From: Geothrix sp. 21YS21S-4
GTDB taxonomy: Bacteria > Acidobacteriota > Holophagae > Holophagales > Holophagaceae
Reading direction: 5' to 3'
DNA: 64,000 nucleotides
Assembly (NCBI RefSeq): GCF_030845995.1
Contig: NZ_CP132719.1
Location: 2,914,001-2,978,000 of the forward strand
Made by a program: the position numbers and the translations under genes. A model generated the notes under the pieces. The model was not told the DNA's origin and ran no database searches. It saw only the letters and a program-made list of their open reading frames with translations. Positions 2,953 to 22,601 of the stretch are shown here, one piece after another; the first letter of the stretch is position 1; each line of letters starts with the position of its first letter.

Positions 2953-3343
2953 GGGGGTGACCGGTTTCGACAGGTCGTGACCCGGGTGTCCGGTGCAGGC
3001 GGGGGTTGGTCGGCTGGCCCCCTCATCAAGCCGCCCACATCAAACTGCCAACGATAACTTCGAACTGGCTCTCGCTGCCTAGGGCAACCTAGGTTCCGAG
3101 CGAGTCCCCGGGATCTCTGGGTACCGGGCTCGTTAAACCTCCGAAAGGGTGGCTTCGGCCTGCCGGACGGAGGCACCAGATAGGCCGCCGCGACGCCCCC
3201 TGACGACGGCCGAGATCAGGGAGCAAGCGTTCCGAGCGGCTCGTCCGCTCCCCGCCGGAACGCTTCAAGAGCGGACCAAGCCTGTGGAAGAGCCGCCATT
3301 CGGCATGTCTTGGACGTGGGTTCGACTCCCACCACCTCCACCA
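2953..3343 (+). ncRNA. ssrA: Transfer-messenger RNA (tmRNA)
   Basis: The 391-nt RNA rescues stalled ribosomes. Its 5' end GGGGGUGACCGG pairs with the 3' acceptor CACCUCC followed by ACCA, and the T-arm shows GGGTTCGACTCCC (3318-3330). The conserved GGTTTCGACAGG lies near the 5' end. The tag frame at 3047-3082 reads ANDNFELALAA then TAG, ending in the ALAA-type degron recognised by ClpXP/ClpAP. The encoded CCA is at 3341-3343. The 3' end doubles as the attachment site of the adjoining island, and insertion has kept the gene intact. Confidence 0.96.
3329..3343 (+). other. attL: left attachment core at the ssrA 3' end
   Basis: The 15-base sequence CCACCACCTCCACCA, which forms the last 15 bases of tmRNA, recurs exactly at 20970-20984. 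A tyrosine integrase gene of the P4 type begins 164 bases downstream, the standard arrangement for ssrA-targeted islands. Confidence 0.85.
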
Positions 3344-3449
3344 ATTCGACTTCCAACGACATCCAAAATCGTTCAAAACGACACGAAAAATCAGCAATTT
3401 GCGCGATTTTCGAGTCCAGTGGAGTCCGACGAAGTTCATTGAAAGCCGG

Positions 3450-3508
3450 GGGCAACTGGGGGCAAGATTGGGGGCAACCACCGAGGTGCCCCCGGGAGTT
3501 GCCCCCAT
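3450..3508 (+). repeat. GGGGGCAA repeat cluster, probable integrase arm-type sites
   Basis: Three direct copies of GGGGGCAA(C/G) are followed by inverted partners GTGCCCCC and GTTGCCCCC, ending at the integrase start codon. Two further copies (GGGGGCAAC) lie at about 20889-20908 beside attR. Presence at both ends of the island, outside coding sequence, suggests integrase binding and possibly autoregulation of the integrase promoter. Confidence 0.55.
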
Positions 3509-4685
3509 GCCCCTGACCGACGTCAAGATCCGCCAGGCCAAGCCAGGCCCAAAGCCCATCAAGCTCTCGGATGAGCGCGGGCTCTACCTGGAGGTGGCCC
3601 CCGGCGGGGGCAAATGGTGGCGCCTGAAATACCGCTTCGAGGGCAAGGAGAAGCGCCTATCCCTCGGCATCTACCCCGACGTGGGCCTCAAGGAGGCCCG
3701 GGAGCGCCGGGATGAGGCCCGGAAGCTGCTGGCCGACGGCGTGGACCCCAGCCTGCACCGCAAGGCCATCAGGCAGGCCCGTGAGGACGAGGCCGAAAAT
3801 ACCTTCGAGGTGGTGGCCCGCGAGTGGCACGCCAAGAACGCCCACACCTGGGTCGCCGAGCACCGCGATGGCCTTCTCCGGCGCCTCGACCGAGACATCT
3901 TCCCCTGGATCGGCAAACGGCCCGTTGGAGACATCACCGCTCCCGAGCTGCTGGCCGTCATCCGTCGTATCGAGGCCCGGGGGGCACTGGAGACTGCCCA
4001 TCGGGCCCTGAGCACCTGCGGACAAGTCTTCCGCTACGCCATCGCCACAGGTCGCGCCCAGCGGGATGTCGCCGCCGATCTTCAGGGCGCCCTGCCGCGT
4101 CCCCAAGTGAAGCACCTGGCGTCCACCACGGACCCTGGGCGTCTTGGTGAGCTGCTTCGGACCGTCGACACCTACCAGGGAACCCTGGCCACCCGATGCG
4201 CTCTTCGCCTGGCGCCACTCACCTTTGTCCGCCCGGGAGAGCTGCGGACAGCCGAGTGGGCTGCCATGGACCTGGAGGCCGCCGAATGGCGTTTCCAGGC
4301 CAGCAAGGGGGGCCCCCCGCACATCGTGCCCCTCAGCACCCAGGCTATGGCCATCCTCAAGGAGCTTCAGCCCCTCACGGGAAAGGGGCGCTATGTCTTC
4401 CCCGGCGCCCGTAGCAGCGCCCGCCCCATGAGCGAGAACACCGTCAACGCCGCCCTCCGGCGCCTGGACATCCCAAAGGAAGAGCTTTGCGGTCACGGCT
4501 TCCGGGCCGCCGCCCGCACCATCCTGGACGAGGTGCTGGGCTTCCGCCCCGACATCATCGAGCACCAGCTCGCCCACAAGGTGAAGGACCCCAACGGCCG
4601 CGCTTACAACCGCACCGCTCACCTGCCCGAGCGCCGGAAGATGATGCAGCTGTGGGCCGACTATTTTGATCAGATCAAGGGGTAG
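3507..4685 (+). CDS. P4-type tyrosine site-specific integrase
   Basis: A 392-residue integrase of the bacteriophage P4 family. The N-terminal DUF4102 domain (about residues 1-90) begins MPLTDVKIRQAKPG and includes RLSLGIYPDVGLKEAR. A SAM-like core-binding domain follows, then the catalytic domain with R in FVRPGELRTAEW, HGFRAAAR, and a C-terminal AYNRTAHLPERRKMMQLWADY with the nucleophilic Tyr in AYNR. The ATG at 3507 gives the canonical family N-terminus; an in-frame extension upstream runs through the repeat cluster. It should catalyse insertion and excision of the island at ssrA. It points inward from attL and converges on hsdM. Confidence 0.93.
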   Translation: MPLTDVKIRQAKPGPKPIKLSDERGLYLEVAPGGGKWWRLKYRFEGKEKRLSLGIYPDVGLKEARERRDEARKLLADGVDPSLHRKAIRQAREDEAENTFEVVAREWHAKNAHTWVAEHRDGLLRRLDRDIFPWIGKRPVGDITAPELLAVIRRIEARGALETAHRALSTCGQVFRYAIATGRAQRDVAADLQGALPRPQVKHLASTTDPGRLGELLRTVDTYQGTLATRCALRLAPLTFVRPGELRTAEWAAMDLEAAEWRFQASKGGPPHIVPLSTQAMAILKELQPLTGKGRYVFPGARSSARPMSENTVNAALRRLDIPKEELCGHGFRAAARTILDEVLGFRPDIIEHQLAHKVKDPNGRAYNRTAHLPERRKMMQLWADYFDQIKG

Positions 4686-6339: not shown

Positions 6340-8031
6340 CTATTGCGCAGGAAGGCCGAACTCACCCCACCGGGAACCTGGGAAGTAGCGCTTGCCGCCT
6401 TCTTCCCGCCGGAGCACGCCGTCCTGGACCAACTGGGCCAGCGCGCGGGTGGCGTATTGCCGGGAGACCTCGTAGACCGCCTGGTAGTCCAGGTTCTTGA
6501 TGAACCCCTTGCTGTCCATGCGCTCCCGGAGGGCGGCGGCGGGCCCCTGGGGTTGCGGCGGCGGGCCCCCGGCCGCAGGCAGGGTGAGGCGCACCCGGTA
6601 GATCGCCCCTGCACCCGGATGGTCGGGGCCCTCCAGGTAGTCGGCCTCCACCAACTCGCGTAATTCTCGATACGCCTGATCCCGGTCCACCTGGTTGAGC
6701 GCCTGGTATTCCCCACTGCGGAAGCTCCCGCCTTCGTTCTTCACCAGGATCCGTTTCTGGCGGGTGCCGATGGGCAGTTGCCGCACGAAGGCCGCCCACT
6801 CGGGCCGCCCTGTCTCGAAGATGGGGGTGTTCCTGAGGGTGACAGTGAACAGGCCGTTCTCCTCCTTGAACTCCGGGAGGGGCAGCCAGGACTGTTCCAT
6901 CTCCTCGTGGATTCGAGGGACGCCTTCCCCCCGTTCCCGCATGAGGCCCAGCTCGGCGAGGATCCGCGCCATGCGGGGGTTCCGACTGGCATGGACCTCC
7001 CGGCGCTTCTGCAGATCATCGATCGTGAGCGACGGGAGAAGCGTGCCGGGGCTGATGACTTCCAGGCGGTCCTGGTAGAGCCACACCTCCGTTCCACGGG
7101 CCTGCTGGCGGTAGTCTCGGTGGCCGGCGGCGTTCACCAGAGCCTCCTGCCAGGCGAAGGTGGGGTATTTCGGCATCTCGCGGAAGAAGAGGTCGTGCAG
7201 CTTCTCCGAGAACCCGATCAACTGGCCCAGACGTTCGTAGGCCCGCTCGAGGACCACAGGCAGGGCACCCTCCAGGCGGGGCTTGATCTCCTCCACGTTG
7301 CTGTGGGGGCCGCTCTGCCGTTCCCGCCCCTCCACCCGGAAGACGCGGAACCCCGCATTGGGGTGTTGCTGGAGGGAGGCGCTCTTGGCAAAGAGGAGCA
7401 GGGCGGCGCGCCGAAGCACCAGGTCGGCCCCTCGACGCTCGGCCAGGCGGCGCTCGATCAGGTAGTCCTGGGGGTCCTCGCCATCCAGCCCGGCCGCCAG
7501 CGCGGCGCGGCGGAGCAGGTCGAGGTCGAGATCCTCCAGGCGCGCCTCGGGCAGCAGGTCCACCTCGGCGCTTTCAATCTGGCCCTGGCGCTTGACGGCG
7601 TTGATGGCCTCCTCCGAATCCTGGATGACGAGGTCGTCCACGCGCCGGGGGTAGCCATCTCCTTCGACCCGCACGGCCTTGGGTGCAGAGCCCCAGGAGA
7701 AGACTAGAACCTCCACGTCTCCGATGCGCTGGCGCCAGCCCTCGGCCTGAGGAGGCACAAGGCGGCGGGCGGGTACCTTGAGCATCTCCTCAACGGCCTC
7801 CGAGGGGTATCCGTGGCCCGCCAGGCTACCGTCGTCCTCCATGCCCAGGATCAGCACGCCCCCATCCGCATTGGCGAAGGCAGCGGCATATTCCGCGATC
7901 TGGTCGCGCACCTCCTTGCGTTCCCGGGGGATCTTCCGTCCTTCGGGGCCATGCCAGAGCGATTTCCGCTCGAAGTATTGCCCCTCTTCCTGGCCCTGGT
8001 AAGTGGCGAGGTCCAAGTGACGGCTGGTCAT
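6340..8031 (-). CDS. AlbA_2/Schlafen-like DNA-binding protein with RecG-type HATPase_4 domain
   Basis: A 563-residue protein. The N-terminal AlbA_2 (Schlafen-fold) domain, about residues 15-140, has EGQYFERKSLW and AYAAAFANADGGVLILGMEDDG. The middle region has the HATPase_c_4 pattern FAWQEALVNAAGHRDYRQ (about 275-300) and MRERGEGVPRIHEEM. A winged-helix region lies at the C-terminus. Such genes often accompany type I R-M loci as accessory or regulatory proteins; their exact role there is not settled. The start overlaps the hsdS stop by 4 bases (ATGA), so it is translated with hsdR and hsdS. Confidence 0.75.
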   Translation of the reverse strand: MTSRHLDLATYQGQEEGQYFERKSLWHGPEGRKIPRERKEVRDQIAEYAAAFANADGGVLILGMEDDGSLAGHGYPSEAVEEMLKVPARRLVPPQAEGWRQRIGDVEVLVFSWGSAPKAVRVEGDGYPRRVDDLVIQDSEEAINAVKRQGQIESAEVDLLPEARLEDLDLDLLRRAALAAGLDGEDPQDYLIERRLAERRGADLVLRRAALLLFAKSASLQQHPNAGFRVFRVEGRERQSGPHSNVEEIKPRLEGALPVVLERAYERLGQLIGFSEKLHDLFFREMPKYPTFAWQEALVNAAGHRDYRQQARGTEVWLYQDRLEVISPGTLLPSLTIDDLQKRREVHASRNPRMARILAELGLMRERGEGVPRIHEEMEQSWLPLPEFKEENGLFTVTLRNTPIFETGRPEWAAFVRQLPIGTRQKRILVKNEGGSFRSGEYQALNQVDRDQAYRELRELVEADYLEGPDHPGAGAIYRVRLTLPAAGGPPPQPQGPAAALRERMDSKGFIKNLDYQAVYEVSRQYATRALAQLVQDGVLRREEGGKRYFPGSRWGEFGLPAQ

Positions 8032-14901: not shown

Positions 14902-14950
14902 CTGTCGACACCCATGATTAAAAAATCATCGACTGTCGACGACTTTTCGC
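14880..14950. repeat. GTCGAC repeat and palindrome cluster after the Rep gene
   Basis: ACTGTCGAC occurs at 14901-14909 and 14932-14940, flanking the palindrome ATGATT-AAA-AATCAT (about 14913-14927). ATCGACACTTCGCGAC lies just before. Related GTCGACA copies recur at about 17059 and as a tandem GTCGACATCAA pair at about 17360-17382. The arrangement could be a Rep origin or an operator for the next gene. Confidence 0.45.
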
Positions 14951-15013: not shown

Positions 15014-17020
15014 ATGAGCATCCACCCGCGCCCAGGCGAGTACGGCCAGCCCGTGACGATCAAGCATCCACATACCCCCACGCCGCTGGCCACCTGGAGC
15101 GACCCGACCGCCGTAGCCACCGCCGTCCCCGACGGGCCCATGCCGCCGATGATTAACGAGGTTCCCCTCATTCCGCTTGGCGACCCTCTTCCCGGTCGCG
15201 CTGACTGGGAGGAGCGGGCGCAGGAGATGGATTTCGAGGAACCGCCCTTCGACGGGGAGGGGTCAAAGCCTGCGGCGGGAGCCGTGGTGGTGGAACCGGA
15301 CGGCCGCCTATGGCTCGTGTCCCCAACGAACGAATACGGCCATTGCAAAACCACCTTCCCGAAGGGTAAAGCCCACGGCATGAGCCTCAAGGCCACGGCC
15401 TTGAAGGAGGTCTTCGAGGAGGCGGGCCTCCAAGTTGAGCTCTTCGACCACCTCGTCGACGTGACGAAGACCACCTCCCGCACCCGCTACTATCTGGCCC
15501 GCCGGAAGGGTGGTAGCCCCGCAAGCATGTGCTGGGAGATGCAATCGGTCCACTTGGTGCCGCTGGAAAAGGCCAAGGAGATGCTGAATCAGCCGGTCGA
15601 CCACCAGATCATCGACACCCTGATCGAGCATTGGCCAAGCTGGGCCGGTTGGTTTTTCCGACGCAACGGCGAGGCCCCTGCCTGGGAGGCAGCCAAAAGC
15701 GGTCGGACACCAGCAAGCCGCAAAGACTGGCTCACTCTTCCGCTCCCGACGAGGCGGGCACGTATTCCGCTGGACATTCGACTTGACGCGAGTGAATCCA
15801 ACAATCTGAAGCTGGGCCTCGTGCCCCAGAGGATGGAGCAGAAGTGGTTCGCCTACTTCGAGGGCGATATCCTCCACGAGCATCGAAGCTGGACCGGGTT
15901 CTGCATCAGCGAAATCCATTTCCAACCCGACGGTGATGGGCTCCGGGCGACCTACGCTGACGTGAACCGGCAGACAGGTCGGTACGAATGCACTGATGAC
16001 GCCGAGGATGCCCGCCTCCTCACCGAACGCATCCGGCAACTCGCCCACATCACCGAAGAAGATCGGAACGCTGAGGATTCCTTTGTCGCCGGGTTAAAAG
16101 CATCCTTGGTGCCGAACTACCTGGGCGACCCCAAGGTGGTCGGCAGGCTCGTGGAGAGCTACCTCCAGGCCGTGCTGGACCAGCATGTGGCCTCGAACCA
16201 AGGTGGAGATGTCCAGGCCGCCCACGCGGCATTCATGGACCAGAACAAGGCCCTGGCGCGCATTTTCGCGGGCGACGACTCGACTTACCAAACCATCGGC
16301 ATCTGGAACACGGCTGGCTCGCTGGGAACACTCGCCATCAAGGCTCTGGACCTGGACCCGGCCTACTATGCCGATGAGAACCTCCTTTGCATCCTTTCAG
16401 AAGGACTGGCTGGGGTGGCCATCTGCTTGCGCGAGATGACCACGGCCTTTGAGGCAGACCCCCAGGCCGAGTTCAAAAGAGACTTCCTGCCCCAAATCCA
16501 GAGGCTCGCGCAATTCACAGCCTCGGTGCTCATGGGCACCCAGGCTGTACTGTTTCCCGAGCTGTCCCTCCGCGCCTTCACCTATGTGCAGGCAATTCCT
16601 AAACCGAAGGTGCCTGGGTTGTTTGACACCCCCATAGACATCGACAACACGCAAGAGGAAGAGGAGGAGAAAGGCCAGGCCGACGAGGACATGACCCCCG
16701 ACGAGATTGACGAACTTCGGATCGCTTTTGATCTCGCGCCGCTCAACGGCAAGCCCACACATGGAGGAGGAGGTTCATCGGAGCCTACCTTGAACAAGAT
16801 GGGCAGGCCCATCACGCTTCCGGGCCCCATCGGCGCCCTCGCGAAGAAGGTCGGGGGCGTCGGCGCCCTCGCTGATGAGTTGGGGATCTCACCCCGAACC
16901 GTCCGGCGTTGGGCTACGGATGGTGTGATTCCCAAGATGGGCTTGAAGGTACTGAAGCACCCGTTTGAGCAGCATGCCGTTGATCTGGAGGGGCTCGTGG
17001 ACACCTCGGTCAAGGAGTAG
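15014..17020 (+). CDS. NUDIX hydrolase-like / HTH multidomain protein
   Basis: A 668-residue protein of unusual build. Residues 85-200 form a NUDIX domain (PAAGAVVVEPDG, FPKGKAHGMS, then KEVFEEAGL). The box is imperfect: the first acidic position is Met and the Arg is Lys, while the EE pair is kept. Residues 255-345 hold a compact domain with QKWFAYFEGDILHEHRSWTG. I associate this segment with ADP-ribose/NAD-linked proteins, but only from memory. A helical region and an acidic linker (EEEEEKGQADED) follow. Residues 610-655 form a HTH (VGALADELGISPRTVRRWATDG). The ATG at 15014 has GGAGC 6 bases upstream. It could bind or cleave a nucleotide and control transcription. Confidence 0.6.
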   Translation: MSIHPRPGEYGQPVTIKHPHTPTPLATWSDPTAVATAVPDGPMPPMINEVPLIPLGDPLPGRADWEERAQEMDFEEPPFDGEGSKPAAGAVVVEPDGRLWLVSPTNEYGHCKTTFPKGKAHGMSLKATALKEVFEEAGLQVELFDHLVDVTKTTSRTRYYLARRKGGSPASMCWEMQSVHLVPLEKAKEMLNQPVDHQIIDTLIEHWPSWAGWFFRRNGEAPAWEAAKSGRTPASRKDWLTLPLPTRRARIPLDIRLDASESNNLKLGLVPQRMEQKWFAYFEGDILHEHRSWTGFCISEIHFQPDGDGLRATYADVNRQTGRYECTDDAEDARLLTERIRQLAHITEEDRNAEDSFVAGLKASLVPNYLGDPKVVGRLVESYLQAVLDQHVASNQGGDVQAAHAAFMDQNKALARIFAGDDSTYQTIGIWNTAGSLGTLAIKALDLDPAYYADENLLCILSEGLAGVAICLREMTTAFEADPQAEFKRDFLPQIQRLAQFTASVLMGTQAVLFPELSLRAFTYVQAIPKPKVPGLFDTPIDIDNTQEEEEEKGQADEDMTPDEIDELRIAFDLAPLNGKPTHGGGGSSEPTLNKMGRPITLPGPIGALAKKVGGVGALADELGISPRTVRRWATDGVIPKMGLKVLKHPFEQHAVDLEGLVDTSVKE

Positions 17021-17023
17021 CCG

Positions 17024-17344
17024 ATGTGGATCTTCACGCCGTCATCGTTTCTTTCGATTGTCGACAAGGGTGGTGATGGGAGCACCCTGCTGATCCGGGC
17101 CCGCCGAGAGGGCGAGATCGAAGCCCACTTCCCGGAGGTCGTGGTCGAGACCACGCCCCGCAATGACTATCTCTACCGGGCCAGGATCGACCGGGAGCGC
17201 GTGGCACAAACCATGGCCGAAATCATTCGAAAATTGCATCACCCCAACTACAAAGCAGCGATCAAAGGCCCAGACCTCCATGACTCCTGCATGGAGGTCT
17301 GGGACGTGATGTATCGCTACCAGAACCGGCACCGGAAACAGTGA
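17024..17344 (+). CDS. Small conserved hypothetical protein (MWIF-type)
   Basis: A 106-residue protein that begins MWIFTPSSFLSIV, continues with a strand LLIRARREGEIEAHFP, then DYLYRARIDRERVAQTMAEI and HPNYKAAIKGPD, and ends near MEVWDVMYRYQ. I recognise the overall pattern (MW-F-T...G-F-SIV... VRAR ... DY-YRA ... NFK ... VW) as a widespread uncharacterised bacterial family, but I know no assigned function. It starts only 3 bases after the NUDIX-HTH stop, so the two are almost certainly co-expressed and may act together. Confidence 0.6.
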   Translation: MWIFTPSSFLSIVDKGGDGSTLLIRARREGEIEAHFPEVVVETTPRNDYLYRARIDRERVAQTMAEIIRKLHHPNYKAAIKGPDLHDSCMEVWDVMYRYQNRHRKQ

Positions 17345-17760: not shown

Positions 17761-18804
17761 ATGGCTGGCAATAAGCACCACTTCCTTCCTCGATTCCTGA
17801 TGAAGGGCTTTGCAAGCAGAATTGAAGAAAAGAAGGTCTTCGTCTGGCTATACCGTAAGAACGCCGCCCCCCGGGAAGAAAGCACTCGCAATATCGGACA
17901 CGAAAAGGGCTTCTACAGAACCGGACAGGACACCGCAGACCCCGAGATTACGGCCGCTGAGAGGCCCATGGTGGAGCTTGTCGATCACCTACGGGACCTG
18001 CCTACCGGAAGCGCAGCCGATGGTATGGGCGTACCTGAAATGGTCGCCCACTTCGTGACCCGCACCAGGCACATACGTGATTCTGTCGAGGCCCTCGGAG
18101 ATATCGCGCTTGAACGATTCGATGATTTTCTGGCATCCGGTCAGGACTTCATGCGCATGGTGCTGAATTCTCCGAAGACTAAGCAGCAGATCCTGGCGGG
18201 GACCCCAGCATTTCTACGTCCGATGGCCATGCAGGACTTTCCCAGTTTACTCAAGAGATTTGAGGAAGAGTGTGGACCAGCGCTTCAGGCCATGATTCTT
18301 GATGCCATGTCTCAGACCCGAAAGAGAATCCCCGTGCTGGTGAAGAAAACCCATGTGGAACTACTGCGAAGGGAATTGGCCCCCGAGGCGCGAGTGGCGA
18401 ACTACCGCAAGCTGTCGTGGTCTGTGATCGACGTTCCGTCCCCGATGATTCTCGGTGATGTGGGTGTGCTCTTCGAAACAGGAGGGACCCGTCGATACAA
18501 ACCCTATGACGAGAAGGGCGACCTGCTGATGGGGGCGTATCTCCCGATCACGAGCCAACGGCTGCTGGTGGGACTCCTCCCTGACCGACCTCCAACATCA
18601 TCTCCGGAAGAAATACGCGCCGCCTATGCGAGGGCTTGTAGGGAGTTTTTCGTGGGGAGCGCCCAATCCGAGGAGTTGAAGCAGCTTCAGCCGCTACTCG
18701 GAACCGAGTCCGAAATGATGAGTCTTGATGAGGTGGACAGAGCTTTCAAAGAGTGGATGTTAGAGGCATCGGCTGACCTGGCTGGCAACGATGCACTGGA
18801 ATGA
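17761..18804 (+). CDS. DUF4238 domain protein
   Basis: A 347-residue protein beginning MAGNKHHFLPRFLMKGFAS, the diagnostic start of DUF4238 (H-x-F-P-x-F-L-x2-F). The body is mostly helical, with later strands around WSVIDVPSPMILGDVGVLF and AYLPITSQRLLVGLLP, typical of this family. No membrane segment is visible. DUF4238 genes occur widely in accessory regions and no function is established. Base composition is slightly less GC-rich than the core genes. It lies alone between the GYF_2 gene and the interrupted zinc-ribbon gene. Confidence 0.8.
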   Translation: MAGNKHHFLPRFLMKGFASRIEEKKVFVWLYRKNAAPREESTRNIGHEKGFYRTGQDTADPEITAAERPMVELVDHLRDLPTGSAADGMGVPEMVAHFVTRTRHIRDSVEALGDIALERFDDFLASGQDFMRMVLNSPKTKQQILAGTPAFLRPMAMQDFPSLLKRFEEECGPALQAMILDAMSQTRKRIPVLVKKTHVELLRRELAPEARVANYRKLSWSVIDVPSPMILGDVGVLFETGGTRRYKPYDEKGDLLMGAYLPITSQRLLVGLLPDRPPTSSPEEIRAAYARACREFFVGSAQSEELKQLQPLLGTESEMMSLDEVDRAFKEWMLEASADLAGNDALE

Positions 18805-20969: not shown

Positions 20970-20984
20970 CCACCACCTCCACCA
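20970..20984 (+). other. attR: right attachment core of the ssrA island
   Basis: An exact copy of CCACCACCTCCACCA from the ssrA 3' end. Sequence on either side differs from attL (GTAG before, TTTATG after). The two GGGGGCAAC repeats lie about 62-80 bases to the left, mirroring the cluster inside attL. Base composition drops sharply to AT-rich just beyond. Confidence 0.82.
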
Positions 20985-21030: not shown

Positions 21031-21057
21031 CTAAATGACTCGCAAATTGTCATTTAG
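21031..21057 (-). terminator. Hairpin at the end of the beta-helix gene
   Basis: CTAAATGAC (21031-21039) pairs exactly with GTCATTTAG (21049-21057), a 9-bp stem with a 9-base loop that overlaps the stop codon. There is no uniform U-run immediately after, so termination is plausible rather than certain. Confidence 0.4.
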
Positions 21058-22595
21058 TTCACACCGGGTCCATCAACAAGCCATACATTAGCCTGAATGT
21101 TAATCAATCTCGCCAATCCATTAGGACCGATAGTTCTTGTCCCGGGACCCCCCGAAGTACCTGTTAAGTACAGAGAAACGCCAGACGCACCGACGATTGT
21201 TTGGTTTCCACCTGTTTCATTATGCAAATAAATAACAGCACCGACAGGCACATACGGGCTCAATATTGAATTCGGGACAGTCACAACAGTAGGTAAATTT
21301 GTTAATCTTTTGATTTTTCCACAATCTGTTTGCGACAGAGCATAAGTTGTTTTCGTGACTTTCTCTGTACCAAAAACAGCGCCAGGATTACTCCAAGGTT
21401 CGGCGGCTAATAAATTAGGATTTGTTATTTGTACCCTACGTCCATCATCATTTGAAGAAGGAATAGACAAGGGGACAAAACCAGAAGCGGTATTATGCCA
21501 TTGATTCCCGTAATCATTCTGTTCAATCATCAAATGACCATCAACAATCCCCCCATAAACAACGTGATCTATAGTCCAATCAATATATCTAACATTGGAG
21601 TCAAAAACTTTAACCATAGGAATATTATGACCGTGAAAATTTATATAAGCATTTTTCACAACAATTCCTTGCGGAAAATACAAATTCCCTCCAATGGTTT
21701 TGCTCACTGTAGTAATGTATGCTAAAGCATTATTTGCCATTTCAGCATAAACACTATCAATGATTATATCTTGAGCATCTGGTGTAAGAATTATCCCATA
21801 ACTACTATTAACAAATGATCCACCCAAAATTCTTGACCCAGTTCCGCTAATTTGTGCATAAACCCCTAAATCAATATCATTATAAGCAGCCATAAAACAA
21901 TTGCTGATTGTAACTCTTGAGTTTCCGCCGTCAGATACCCCGGCAGGACTGACACCAATTATTCCAATAAAATTCGCATTAGCATCATTTCTATCTACAG
22001 TATACATACGAACATTTTCAATTACGGCGTCCCATATATTGTCATATCCATAAATACAGTAATTACTCCCGCCAGCACCACTCCCAAAGTCCTTGAAGAC
22101 AACGTTTATTATTCTCGGGCTAAGAACAAATGGTCGCAAGAAAATACCATGAATAGCGGCCTTTGTACTAGTTATTCTAAGGCCATCTACGGTATAGTGC
22201 GCATTTGAATAAGGATATAAGCCGGTATTTAAATTTCCTAAATCAATGGCGTTTCCACTCCCCGTGTAATAGAGCGTAGCATCTCCATTAGAAAACAAGT
22301 AAACGGGAGTTTGAAAGTCTAACCCGCCAGAATACTGGTAAGTCCCCATCGGGAAATAAATCCCAATAGGCTTACCGCCCTGAACAACATATTGAGAATT
22401 CACCCATTCCGATAATAACTTAAAAGCAGAAGCATTGTCATTGGCAGTCGTATTTACTCCCCAGTCCAACACATTGATGGGAGCGCCATTAATCATTGCG
22501 TAAGATATTGAATTGGAGGATAGATCTCTCCCAAAACAGGGCATGGTTATTGTTGCCATTAAAGCAAAAACCACAGTTATAAGTCGTTTGAACAT
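21054..22595 (-). CDS. Secreted right-handed beta-helix protein (pectate-lyase/tailspike-like)
   Basis: A 513-residue protein. The N-terminus (MFKRLITVVFALMATITMPCFG) is a signal peptide, so it is exported. Next comes the pectate-lyase-3/tailspike entry pattern (VLDWGVNTTANDNASAFKLLSEW...GGKPIGIYFPMGTY), then a long run of parallel-beta-helix turns with Asn/Gly-rich loops. The C-terminal 90 residues (YVPVGAVIYLHNETGGNQTIVG) resemble phage tail-fibre tips. It may bind or cleave polysaccharide. DNA is strongly AT-rich compared with all neighbours, a sign of transfer from another genome. A GTG 6 bases upstream is an alternative start. Confidence 0.65.
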   Translation of the reverse strand: MFKRLITVVFALMATITMPCFGRDLSSNSISYAMINGAPINVLDWGVNTTANDNASAFKLLSEWVNSQYVVQGGKPIGIYFPMGTYQYSGGLDFQTPVYLFSNGDATLYYTGSGNAIDLGNLNTGLYPYSNAHYTVDGLRITSTKAAIHGIFLRPFVLSPRIINVVFKDFGSGAGGSNYCIYGYDNIWDAVIENVRMYTVDRNDANANFIGIIGVSPAGVSDGGNSRVTISNCFMAAYNDIDLGVYAQISGTGSRILGGSFVNSSYGIILTPDAQDIIIDSVYAEMANNALAYITTVSKTIGGNLYFPQGIVVKNAYINFHGHNIPMVKVFDSNVRYIDWTIDHVVYGGIVDGHLMIEQNDYGNQWHNTASGFVPLSIPSSNDDGRRVQITNPNLLAAEPWSNPGAVFGTEKVTKTTYALSQTDCGKIKRLTNLPTVVTVPNSILSPYVPVGAVIYLHNETGGNQTIVGASGVSLYLTGTSGGPGTRTIGPNGLARLINIQANVWLVDGPGVN

Positions 22596-22601
22596 GATCA
22601 C

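What the first reader, a model, noticed from the sequence alone, without database searches (positions are those of the whole stretch)
15014..17020. NUDIX-like domain, RSWTG domain and HTH fused in one island protein
The order NUDIX (85-200), a KWFAYF...RSWTG domain (255-345), helical region, acidic linker and C-terminal HTH is unfamiliar to me. The NUDIX box keeps the EE pair but has Met and Lys at two normally Glu/Arg positions, so it may bind rather than hydrolyse its ligand. That suggests a nucleotide or ADP-ribose sensor that switches transcription, possibly a defence or island-control sensor.
Basis: partly seen in the sequence, partly recalled or inferred. Interest (0 to 1): 0.66.

Follow-up and report, generated by a model that had tools for sequence, protein, structure and literature searches.

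The report
Island protein with phage ADP-ribosylation parts
A gene on a mobile DNA island joins a likely working ADP-ribose-type hydrolase to little-known domains that also occur in phage ADP-ribosylating operons and in bacterial ADP-ribose-removing proteins, so it probably belongs to the phage-bacterium contest over ADP-ribosylation rather than being a simple sensor.

Summary
The architecture is real: one intact 668-aa ORF with N-terminal module, NUDIX, RSWTG domain, helical domain, acidic linker and HTH. The next gene (17024-17344, 'MW protein') belongs to it. The linkage is conserved: NUDIX and RSWTG share a chain in 11 of 80 RSWTG loci read, eight of them with the helical domain and six with an MW domain in front; 9 other loci fuse RSWTG to ADP-ribosylglycohydrolase (ARG); 60 do neither. 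The same NUDIX type, helical domain and MW protein form a phage operon, ADP-ribosyltransferase (ART) - helical - NUDIX - MW; one phage record labels three of the four particle-associated. In the loci read, ART goes with phages, ARG and RSWTG with cells. The Met and Lys that suggested 'binds, does not hydrolyse' are a clade signature; 87 of 89 members keep all three metal-binding Glu, so a working hydrolase is likelier. This HTH is fused in none of the 80 RSWTG loci and has its own possible start codon. Best reading: an island-borne ADP-ribose-processing conflict module, regulation being an add-on. Function is untested; the window's genome has no ARG. New variant of a known kind (ARG-centred anti-ADP-ribosylation systems).

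The parts
15014..15265 (+). N-terminal module (residues 1-84) typical of the phage-type NUDIX clade
15266..15613 (+). NUDIX domain (residues 85-200), Glu132/135/136 kept, Met123 and Lys131 as clade signature
15746..16063 (+). RSWTG domain (residues 245-350)
16064..16693 (+). helical domain (PNYLG..VV), residues 351-560; related to the small protein between ART and NUDIX in phages
16694..16789 (+). acidic and glycine-rich linker
   Evidence: read directly
16780..16792 (+). possible internal start for a free HTH: GGAG 16780-16783, TTG 16790-16792, lining up with the apparent start of free-standing homologues
   Evidence: inference
16790..17017 (+). HTH domain (residues 593-668)
17024..17344 (+). 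MW protein (106 aa), 3 bases after the stop of the first gene; family of a phage/cell cassette
14903..14940 (.). TGTCGAC repeats flanking the palindrome ATGATT-AAAA-AATCAT, upstream of the gene; possible operator
   Evidence: inference, the palindrome was not found in the nine related loci searched
3329..3343 (+). left direct repeat of the island, 3' end of the tmRNA gene
3399..4685 (+). integrase of the island (named by reading of the sequence)
20970..20984 (+). right direct repeat of the island

Best explanation
The gene and its MW neighbour form an island-borne ADP-ribose conflict module. Shown by sequence: its NUDIX type, helical domain and MW protein are the non-ART parts of a phage operon ART - helical - NUDIX - MW, and its RSWTG-helical half is of a type that some bacteria fuse to, or place beside, ADP-ribosylglycohydrolase. 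Inferred: the NUDIX hydrolyses ADP-ribose or a related NDP-X compound; the helical domain docks to the same partner as in the phage cassette (the ART or its target); RSWTG recognises ADP-ribosylated substrates or ADP-ribose; together they blunt ADP-ribosylation by an incoming phage ART, or clear its products. The HTH most likely controls the level of the module, fused or as a short separate product, and is not the main output.
For: NUDIX and RSWTG in one chain in 11 of 80 genome loci (L045, L046, L048-L053, L057, L059, L062) and in an Aeromonas plasmid; as overlapping neighbour genes in a Rhodobacter plasmid. L046 (Gammaproteobacteria MAG) has the window's order with an MW gene next. ARG in the RSWTG chain in 9 of 80, anywhere in the locus in 13 of 80; Pfam ADP_ribosyl_GH in all four of these nine that were scanned (E 5e-50 to 2e-70; L047 also has a phosphatase domain). 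Phage side: of 80 MW loci in viral contigs, 15 have the phage-type NUDIX and all 15 also have ART and helical; of the 65 others, ART in 1 and helical in 0. From the NUDIX side, same strand: ART in 67 of 80 loci, helical 64, MW 49, RSWTG 0, ARG 0. Phage and cell helical domains are homologous (hhalign 99.2%, E 8.8e-20). Three metal Glu kept in 87 of 89. The fHe-Yen8-01 record labels the ART, helical and NUDIX products particle-associated. Pfam supports ART in Dolphis (1e-7) and in the phage-plasmid protein P0002 (1.5e-8), both over cut-off.
Against: No ARG in the whole genome of the window and no ART hit in window 1-30000 by my profile. 60 of the 80 RSWTG loci have neither NUDIX nor ARG in the chain, and among 53 neighbour proteins of RSWTG genes scanned (53 of the 108 I listed) no Pfam family occurs more than twice, so RSWTG is not tied to ADP-ribose everywhere. 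The record's 'ADP-ribosyltransferase' of phage ST4 has no Pfam match at E<=0.01; it was one of five seeds of my ART profile, so the five seed records match by construction. ART and RSWTG are not perfectly divided by the viral label: 4 viral-labelled contigs hold RSWTG, one with ARG, though that one appears to be the Gemmobacter locus L051. Folds of RSWTG and MW gave no convincing structural match, so ligand binding is a guess. No direct evidence of activity or of protection against a phage.
Confidence: 0.48

Rival explanations
1. Counter-defence of the mobile element: the NUDIX and MW parts, of a type shared with phages, destroy NAD/ADP-ribose-derived immune signals of the recipient cell during transfer or establishment of the island, with RSWTG-helical as targeting parts.
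For: The NUDIX-MW pair without RSWTG sits in other settings of the family, one with TniQ- and TnsA/TnsB-like genes nearby (L022); the island has Rep_1-like and AlpA genes (Rep_1 slightly below its cut-off); phage parts labelled particle-associated; PMC9503650 proposes such a use for phage Nudix proteins (section 24 and passages read).
Against: RSWTG-helical is the cell-side type: 0 of 80 phage NUDIX loci have RSWTG, and it is linked to ARG, a repair enzyme, in part of the loci. The island also carries restriction genes, consistent with defence of the host cell.
Confidence: 0.25
2. Ligand sensor: NUDIX binds ADP-ribose or an alarmone without hydrolysis and the HTH switches island genes.
For: HTH in the same chain; Nudix-HTH and WYL regulators are proposed for ARG systems (PMC9503650 section 31); palindrome upstream of the gene; two ARG-operon NUDIX domains (L045, L050) do have a degenerate box.
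Against: Catalytic Glu kept across the window's own clade; HTH weak by Pfam, about 400 residues away, of a type absent from the RSWTG chains of 80 of 80 loci and separate in relatives; possible internal start.
Confidence: 0.18
3. Ordinary NUDIX house-cleaning enzyme with unrelated tails.
For: NUDIX is the only domain above a curated cut-off.
Against: Repeated linkage of NUDIX, RSWTG, helical and MW in distant bacteria and of NUDIX, helical, MW and ART in phages.
Confidence: 0.05

Closest known systems
ARG-centred systems predicted to counter viral ADP-ribosylation (Iyer et al. 2022, PMC9503650, section 31 read in full)
   Same: ARG with NUDIX or WYL and phosphatase partners; here ARG followed by NUDIX-RSWTG-helical, a phosphatase-ARG-RSWTG-helical chain (L047), and an Aeromonas plasmid with a WYL gene and an ARG-annotated gene before MW-NUDIX-RSWTG (the Pfam match of that ARG gene, E 0.012, is below its cut-off)
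   Different: The window's genome has no ARG; RSWTG, helical and MW are not named in the parts read and match no Pfam family over its cut-off, and no TY-Chap1 or TY-Chap3 row appears (both families are in the library); the NUDIX keeps its catalytic Glu
Phage virion ART cassettes (ART fused to or beside head genes; PMC9503650 passages)
   Same: NUDIX type, helical protein and MW protein of the window are found beside ART in phages
   Different: No ART found in the window; NUDIX and helical are fused, with RSWTG between them
NrtR-type Nudix transcription factors (recalled, and as cited in PMC9503650)
   Same: NUDIX plus HTH in one chain
   Different: Large chain with two more domains, catalytic residues kept, HTH dispensable among relatives
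Ap4A hydrolase-like NUDIX enzymes (PDB 3i7u)
   Same: Closest solved structure by sequence for residues 88-202
   Different: Box changes and extra domains; substrate need not be Ap4A

Membership tests
NUDIX superfamily | NUDIX fold by profile | tested here: met
   Pfam PF00293 37.2 bits, cut-off 21.1
NUDIX superfamily | three metal-binding Glu of the box (REuxEE) | tested here: met
   Glu132, 135, 136; 87 of 89 clade rows
NUDIX superfamily | full consensus box GX5EX7REUXEEXGU | tested here: not met
   loop one residue short, Met123 for Glu, Lys131 for Arg
NUDIX superfamily | hydrolysis of an NDP-X substrate | not testable with these tools
   needs enzyme assay
NrtR-type Nudix regulators | NUDIX without catalytic residues, directly joined to the DNA-binding domain (recalled definition) | tested here: not met
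   catalytic Glu kept; HTH about 400 residues further on
ARG-centred anti-ADP-ribosylation systems | an ADP-ribosylglycohydrolase in the system | tested here: not met
   no PF03747 match in the whole genome of the window; present in part of the relatives
ARG-centred anti-ADP-ribosylation systems | NUDIX or WYL partner | tested here: met
   NUDIX in the window; WYL gene near the Aeromonas relative
Phage ART-helical-NUDIX-MW cassette | NUDIX of this clade, helical and MW parts | tested here: met
Phage ART-helical-NUDIX-MW cassette | ART gene in the operon | tested here: not met
   all 21 ART hits lie in other loci; none in window 1-30000
TY-Chap1 / TY-Chap3 chaperone families | match to the Pfam profiles | tested here: inconclusive
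   no TY-Chap row for six RSWTG-bearing proteins at E<=1; a fold relation is not excluded; TY-Chap2 not looked up

The most novel reading that the evidence does not exclude
A two-sided arms race over one tool kit: phages inject ART together with helical, NUDIX and MW proteins, and bacteria and islands have the same helical, NUDIX and MW parts built around RSWTG and ARG as an antidote that docks on the same partner and undoes or drains the ADP-ribosylation. The window protein would be an ARG-free version, with RSWTG as an undescribed ADP-ribose-handling domain.
Probability: 0.3. Interest if true: 0.82.

Novelty: new variant of a known kind. Interest (0 to 1): 0.62.

Why it matters
Three families for which I found no name (RSWTG, helical, MW) connect phage ADP-ribosylation cassettes with bacterial de-ADP-ribosylation proteins. 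That gives concrete, testable candidates for how cells answer phage ADP-ribosyltransferases, a matter of which PMC9503650 says there is hardly any understanding, and it gives partners to small phage proteins that had no Pfam or PHROGs match here.

Tried and rejected
Non-hydrolysing NUDIX: rejected as first choice because the Met/Lys pair is a clade trait and the metal Glu are kept. Exceptions: L021 (degenerate box) and L025 (truncated gene) among the 89 rows, and the ARG-operon NUDIX of L045 and L050, outside that set, with a degenerate box; there a binding role is possible.

Common context for RSWTG genes without NUDIX or ARG in the chain: none found (53 of 108 listed neighbours). Structure search for RSWTG-helical: best PDB Foldseek E 0.04 and best VIA Z 5.1, rmsd 4.5 over 103 residues, to a Bet v 1-like chain; such values may mean only a common arrangement; the helical part was hardly tested by that list. 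MW: best Foldseek E 0.05, best VIA Z 4.2, rmsd 4.4 over 65 residues. Whole window protein in viral contigs: none by its own peptides. Middle region in phage records: none. RSWTG in viral contigs: 4 loci, one of which (L125) appears to repeat the Gemmobacter locus L051. PADLOC: no match at E<=0.001 for the protein or the MW protein.

Link of ARG to NUDIX inside the window's own family: of 77 genomes, 5 of the 9 with the NUDIX part (own genome and truncated or partial copies counted; five further genomes matched by the HTH only) have ARG, against 10 of 68 others (Fisher one-sided p 0.012). In three the two lie 2.6-6.4 kb apart, but two of these share flanking genes, so this may be one chromosomal site; I do not lean on it. 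Promoter and terminator scans: not above chance.

Papers. PMC9503650: sections 24 and 31 in full, passages. PMC5512222, PMC7824862 and PMC9503643 (Mecenats66): passages only. Others: search listings only. The searches did not show this architecture or the ART-helical-NUDIX-MW operon in print; only open-licence PMC papers are held, and figures and supplements could not be read, so figure 7 of PMC9503650 may show some of these domains under other names.

Limits of the counts: the scans keep the best 80 of 271, 176 and 260 relatives; viral contigs recur between scans and some are near-copies (for example L192 and L193), so they are not independent; domain calls rest on profiles that I built from these same loci, five ART seeds included. 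Of the seven named phages with both NUDIX and MW I opened four.

Full report
What is there. The window protein is one open frame of 668 aa at 15014-17020, found once in a one-contig 3.08-Mb genome. NUDIX is certain (PDB relative 3i7u). The RSWTG and helical parts match no Pfam family over its cut-off. Together (residues 220-560) they gave a confident AlphaFold model (mean pLDDT 90.4): a small alpha/beta domain (strands at about 248-257 and 278-318, helices at about 259-266 and 329-344) followed by a helical domain. The HTH is weak by Pfam but has clear free-standing homologues. The gene lies in an element of about 17.6 kb between a tmRNA gene and a 15-bp repeat of its 3' end, with an integrase and type I restriction genes (by reading; the HsdR-like one also by PADLOC), AlpA, a Rep_1-like replication protein (slightly below its cut-off), a DUF4238 gene and an IS3-like element (by reading).

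The gene after it. Three bases after the stop codon, 17024-17344 encodes a 106-aa protein that begins MWIFT. In five genomes of the same family (L019, L020, L022, L023, L024) a protein with the N-terminal module and NUDIX of the window (in L024 only its end is on the contig), without RSWTG, is followed at once by this MW gene. In the three other NUDIX-bearing genomes of the family no MW gene was found in the stretch read: G010 (degenerate NUDIX), G006 and G037 (truncated copies). I infer that NUDIX-MW is the common unit in this family and RSWTG-helical-HTH is extra here.

Linkage in cells. A scan of genome contigs with nine RSWTG sequences found 271 relatives; the best 80 were read. Counts per 80: NUDIX in the same chain 11, MW in the same chain 6, helical in the same chain 9, ARG in the same chain 9, ARG anywhere in the locus 13, this HTH in the same chain 0, ART anywhere 0. 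In L045, L050 and L051 an ARG gene comes directly before a NUDIX-RSWTG-helical gene, and in a Rhodobacter plasmid an IMPase-ARG gene before overlapping NUDIX and RSWTG-helical genes. In L048, L049 and L062, MW, NUDIX, RSWTG and helical form one chain; in L053, L057, L059 and an Aeromonas plasmid, MW, NUDIX and RSWTG. L046, a Gammaproteobacteria MAG, has the layout of the window without the HTH, with the MW gene next. L047 joins a phosphatase domain, ARG, RSWTG and helical. The other 60 of 80 RSWTG genes have neither NUDIX nor ARG in the chain, and no common neighbour was found.

The phage side. Protein searches of phage records with the MW protein and with the NUDIX part gave eight records each, seven of them the same phages. 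I opened four of the seven: in Dolphis, ST4, Mecenats66 and fHe-Yen8-01 the order is ART (in Mecenats66 an unlabelled large protein), a protein of about 160 aa, NUDIX, MW. The ART label is backed by Pfam in Dolphis (1e-7) but not in ST4 (no match at E<=0.01); the others were not sent to Pfam. The 160-aa protein is a relative of the helical domain: the four phage proteins match the cell-side profile at 4e-12 to 7e-8 in a search of five sequences (the fifth, from the phage-plasmid, 7e-25, may have been part of that profile), and profile against profile gave 99.2%, E 8.8e-20. In the fHe-Yen8-01 record the ART, helical and NUDIX products carry a particle-associated label; I found no paper on it. 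A phage-plasmid of Pseudomonas juntendi has NUDIX and ART in one chain with the helical gene next. Viral contigs: of 80 MW loci, 15 have this NUDIX and all 15 have ART and helical in the locus; of 65 without it, 1 has ART and 0 helical. Of 80 NUDIX loci, on the same strand, ART 67, helical 64, MW 49, RSWTG 0, ARG 0; among 71 with at least 2.5 kb upstream, 46 have both ART and helical upstream; among 75 with at least 1 kb downstream, 40 have MW within 2.5 kb.

Trees. The N-module-NUDIX of the window, of its family and of L046 form one clade (99/90) apart from the 50 phage rows that I kept. The helical domains split into a cell side and a phage side (96/97), the window branching first on the cell side, with weak support. 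So the window copy is not a recent capture from the phages sampled.

NUDIX chemistry. In 89 different rows of this clade the first box Glu is Leu, Met, Ile or Ala in 85, the Arg is Lys in 82, and all three metal-binding Glu are present in 87; the two misses are a degenerate box (L021) and a truncated gene (L025). This pattern fits a working enzyme with a changed box better than a decayed one; activity is not shown.

The HTH. Free-standing homologues appear to start M-A-K-I-G-R-P. The window has TTG-AAC-AAG-ATG-GGC-AGG-CCC at the matching place, with GGAG six bases before the TTG. The fusion may therefore also yield a free HTH. In G010 a free HTH gene lies just upstream of the NUDIX gene. An operator-like palindrome lies before the window gene; it was not found in the nine related loci searched.

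Interpretation. ADP-ribose is the common theme of both settings. The main reading (island-borne module against ADP-ribosylation by phages) joins the cell-side link of RSWTG-helical to ARG with the phage-side link of the same NUDIX, helical and MW parts to ART. It extends the ARG-centred systems proposed in PMC9503650 (section 31). Inferred and not shown: substrate, partner, direction (defence of the host cell or counter-defence of the element) and role of the HTH.

Noticed in passing
window 21054-22601 (-): 515-aa ORF in a stretch of about 38-43% GC right after the right repeat of the island; no Pfam match.
   Followed up: partly
window 6340-8031 (-): ATP-binding/Schlafen-like gene (by reading) inside the type I restriction operon, between hsdS and hsdM; PADLOC lists partial matches to pAgo and SIR2-Ago-associated models (E 5e-19, 7e-13).
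   Followed up: partly
L022 4501-11448: The NUDIX-MW pair of genome G040 lies near TniQ- and TnsA/TnsB-like genes.
   Followed up: partly
L020 10917-13592 and L024 1800-5108: Large Ser/Thr kinases near NUDIX-MW pairs, each with a GntR/aminotransferase-type regulator next; PADLOC matches PD-T4-6 for the L024 one, the L020 one was not scanned there.
   Followed up: partly
L041 4693-6636: Caballeronia plasmid protein: about 430 aa without a Pfam match over its cut-off, fused in front of the phage-type NUDIX.
   Followed up: partly
L021 784-2226 and 8928-9770: NUDIX with degenerate box and a C-terminal half without Pfam match, beside type III restriction genes and a replication protein related to that of the window.
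   Followed up: partly
window 17761-18804 (+): DUF4238 gene in the island with a weak match to PADLOC DUF4238-Pers.
   Followed up: no
L045 and L050 NUDIX domains: Box degenerate in two ARG operons, so here NUDIX may have become a binder.
   Followed up: no
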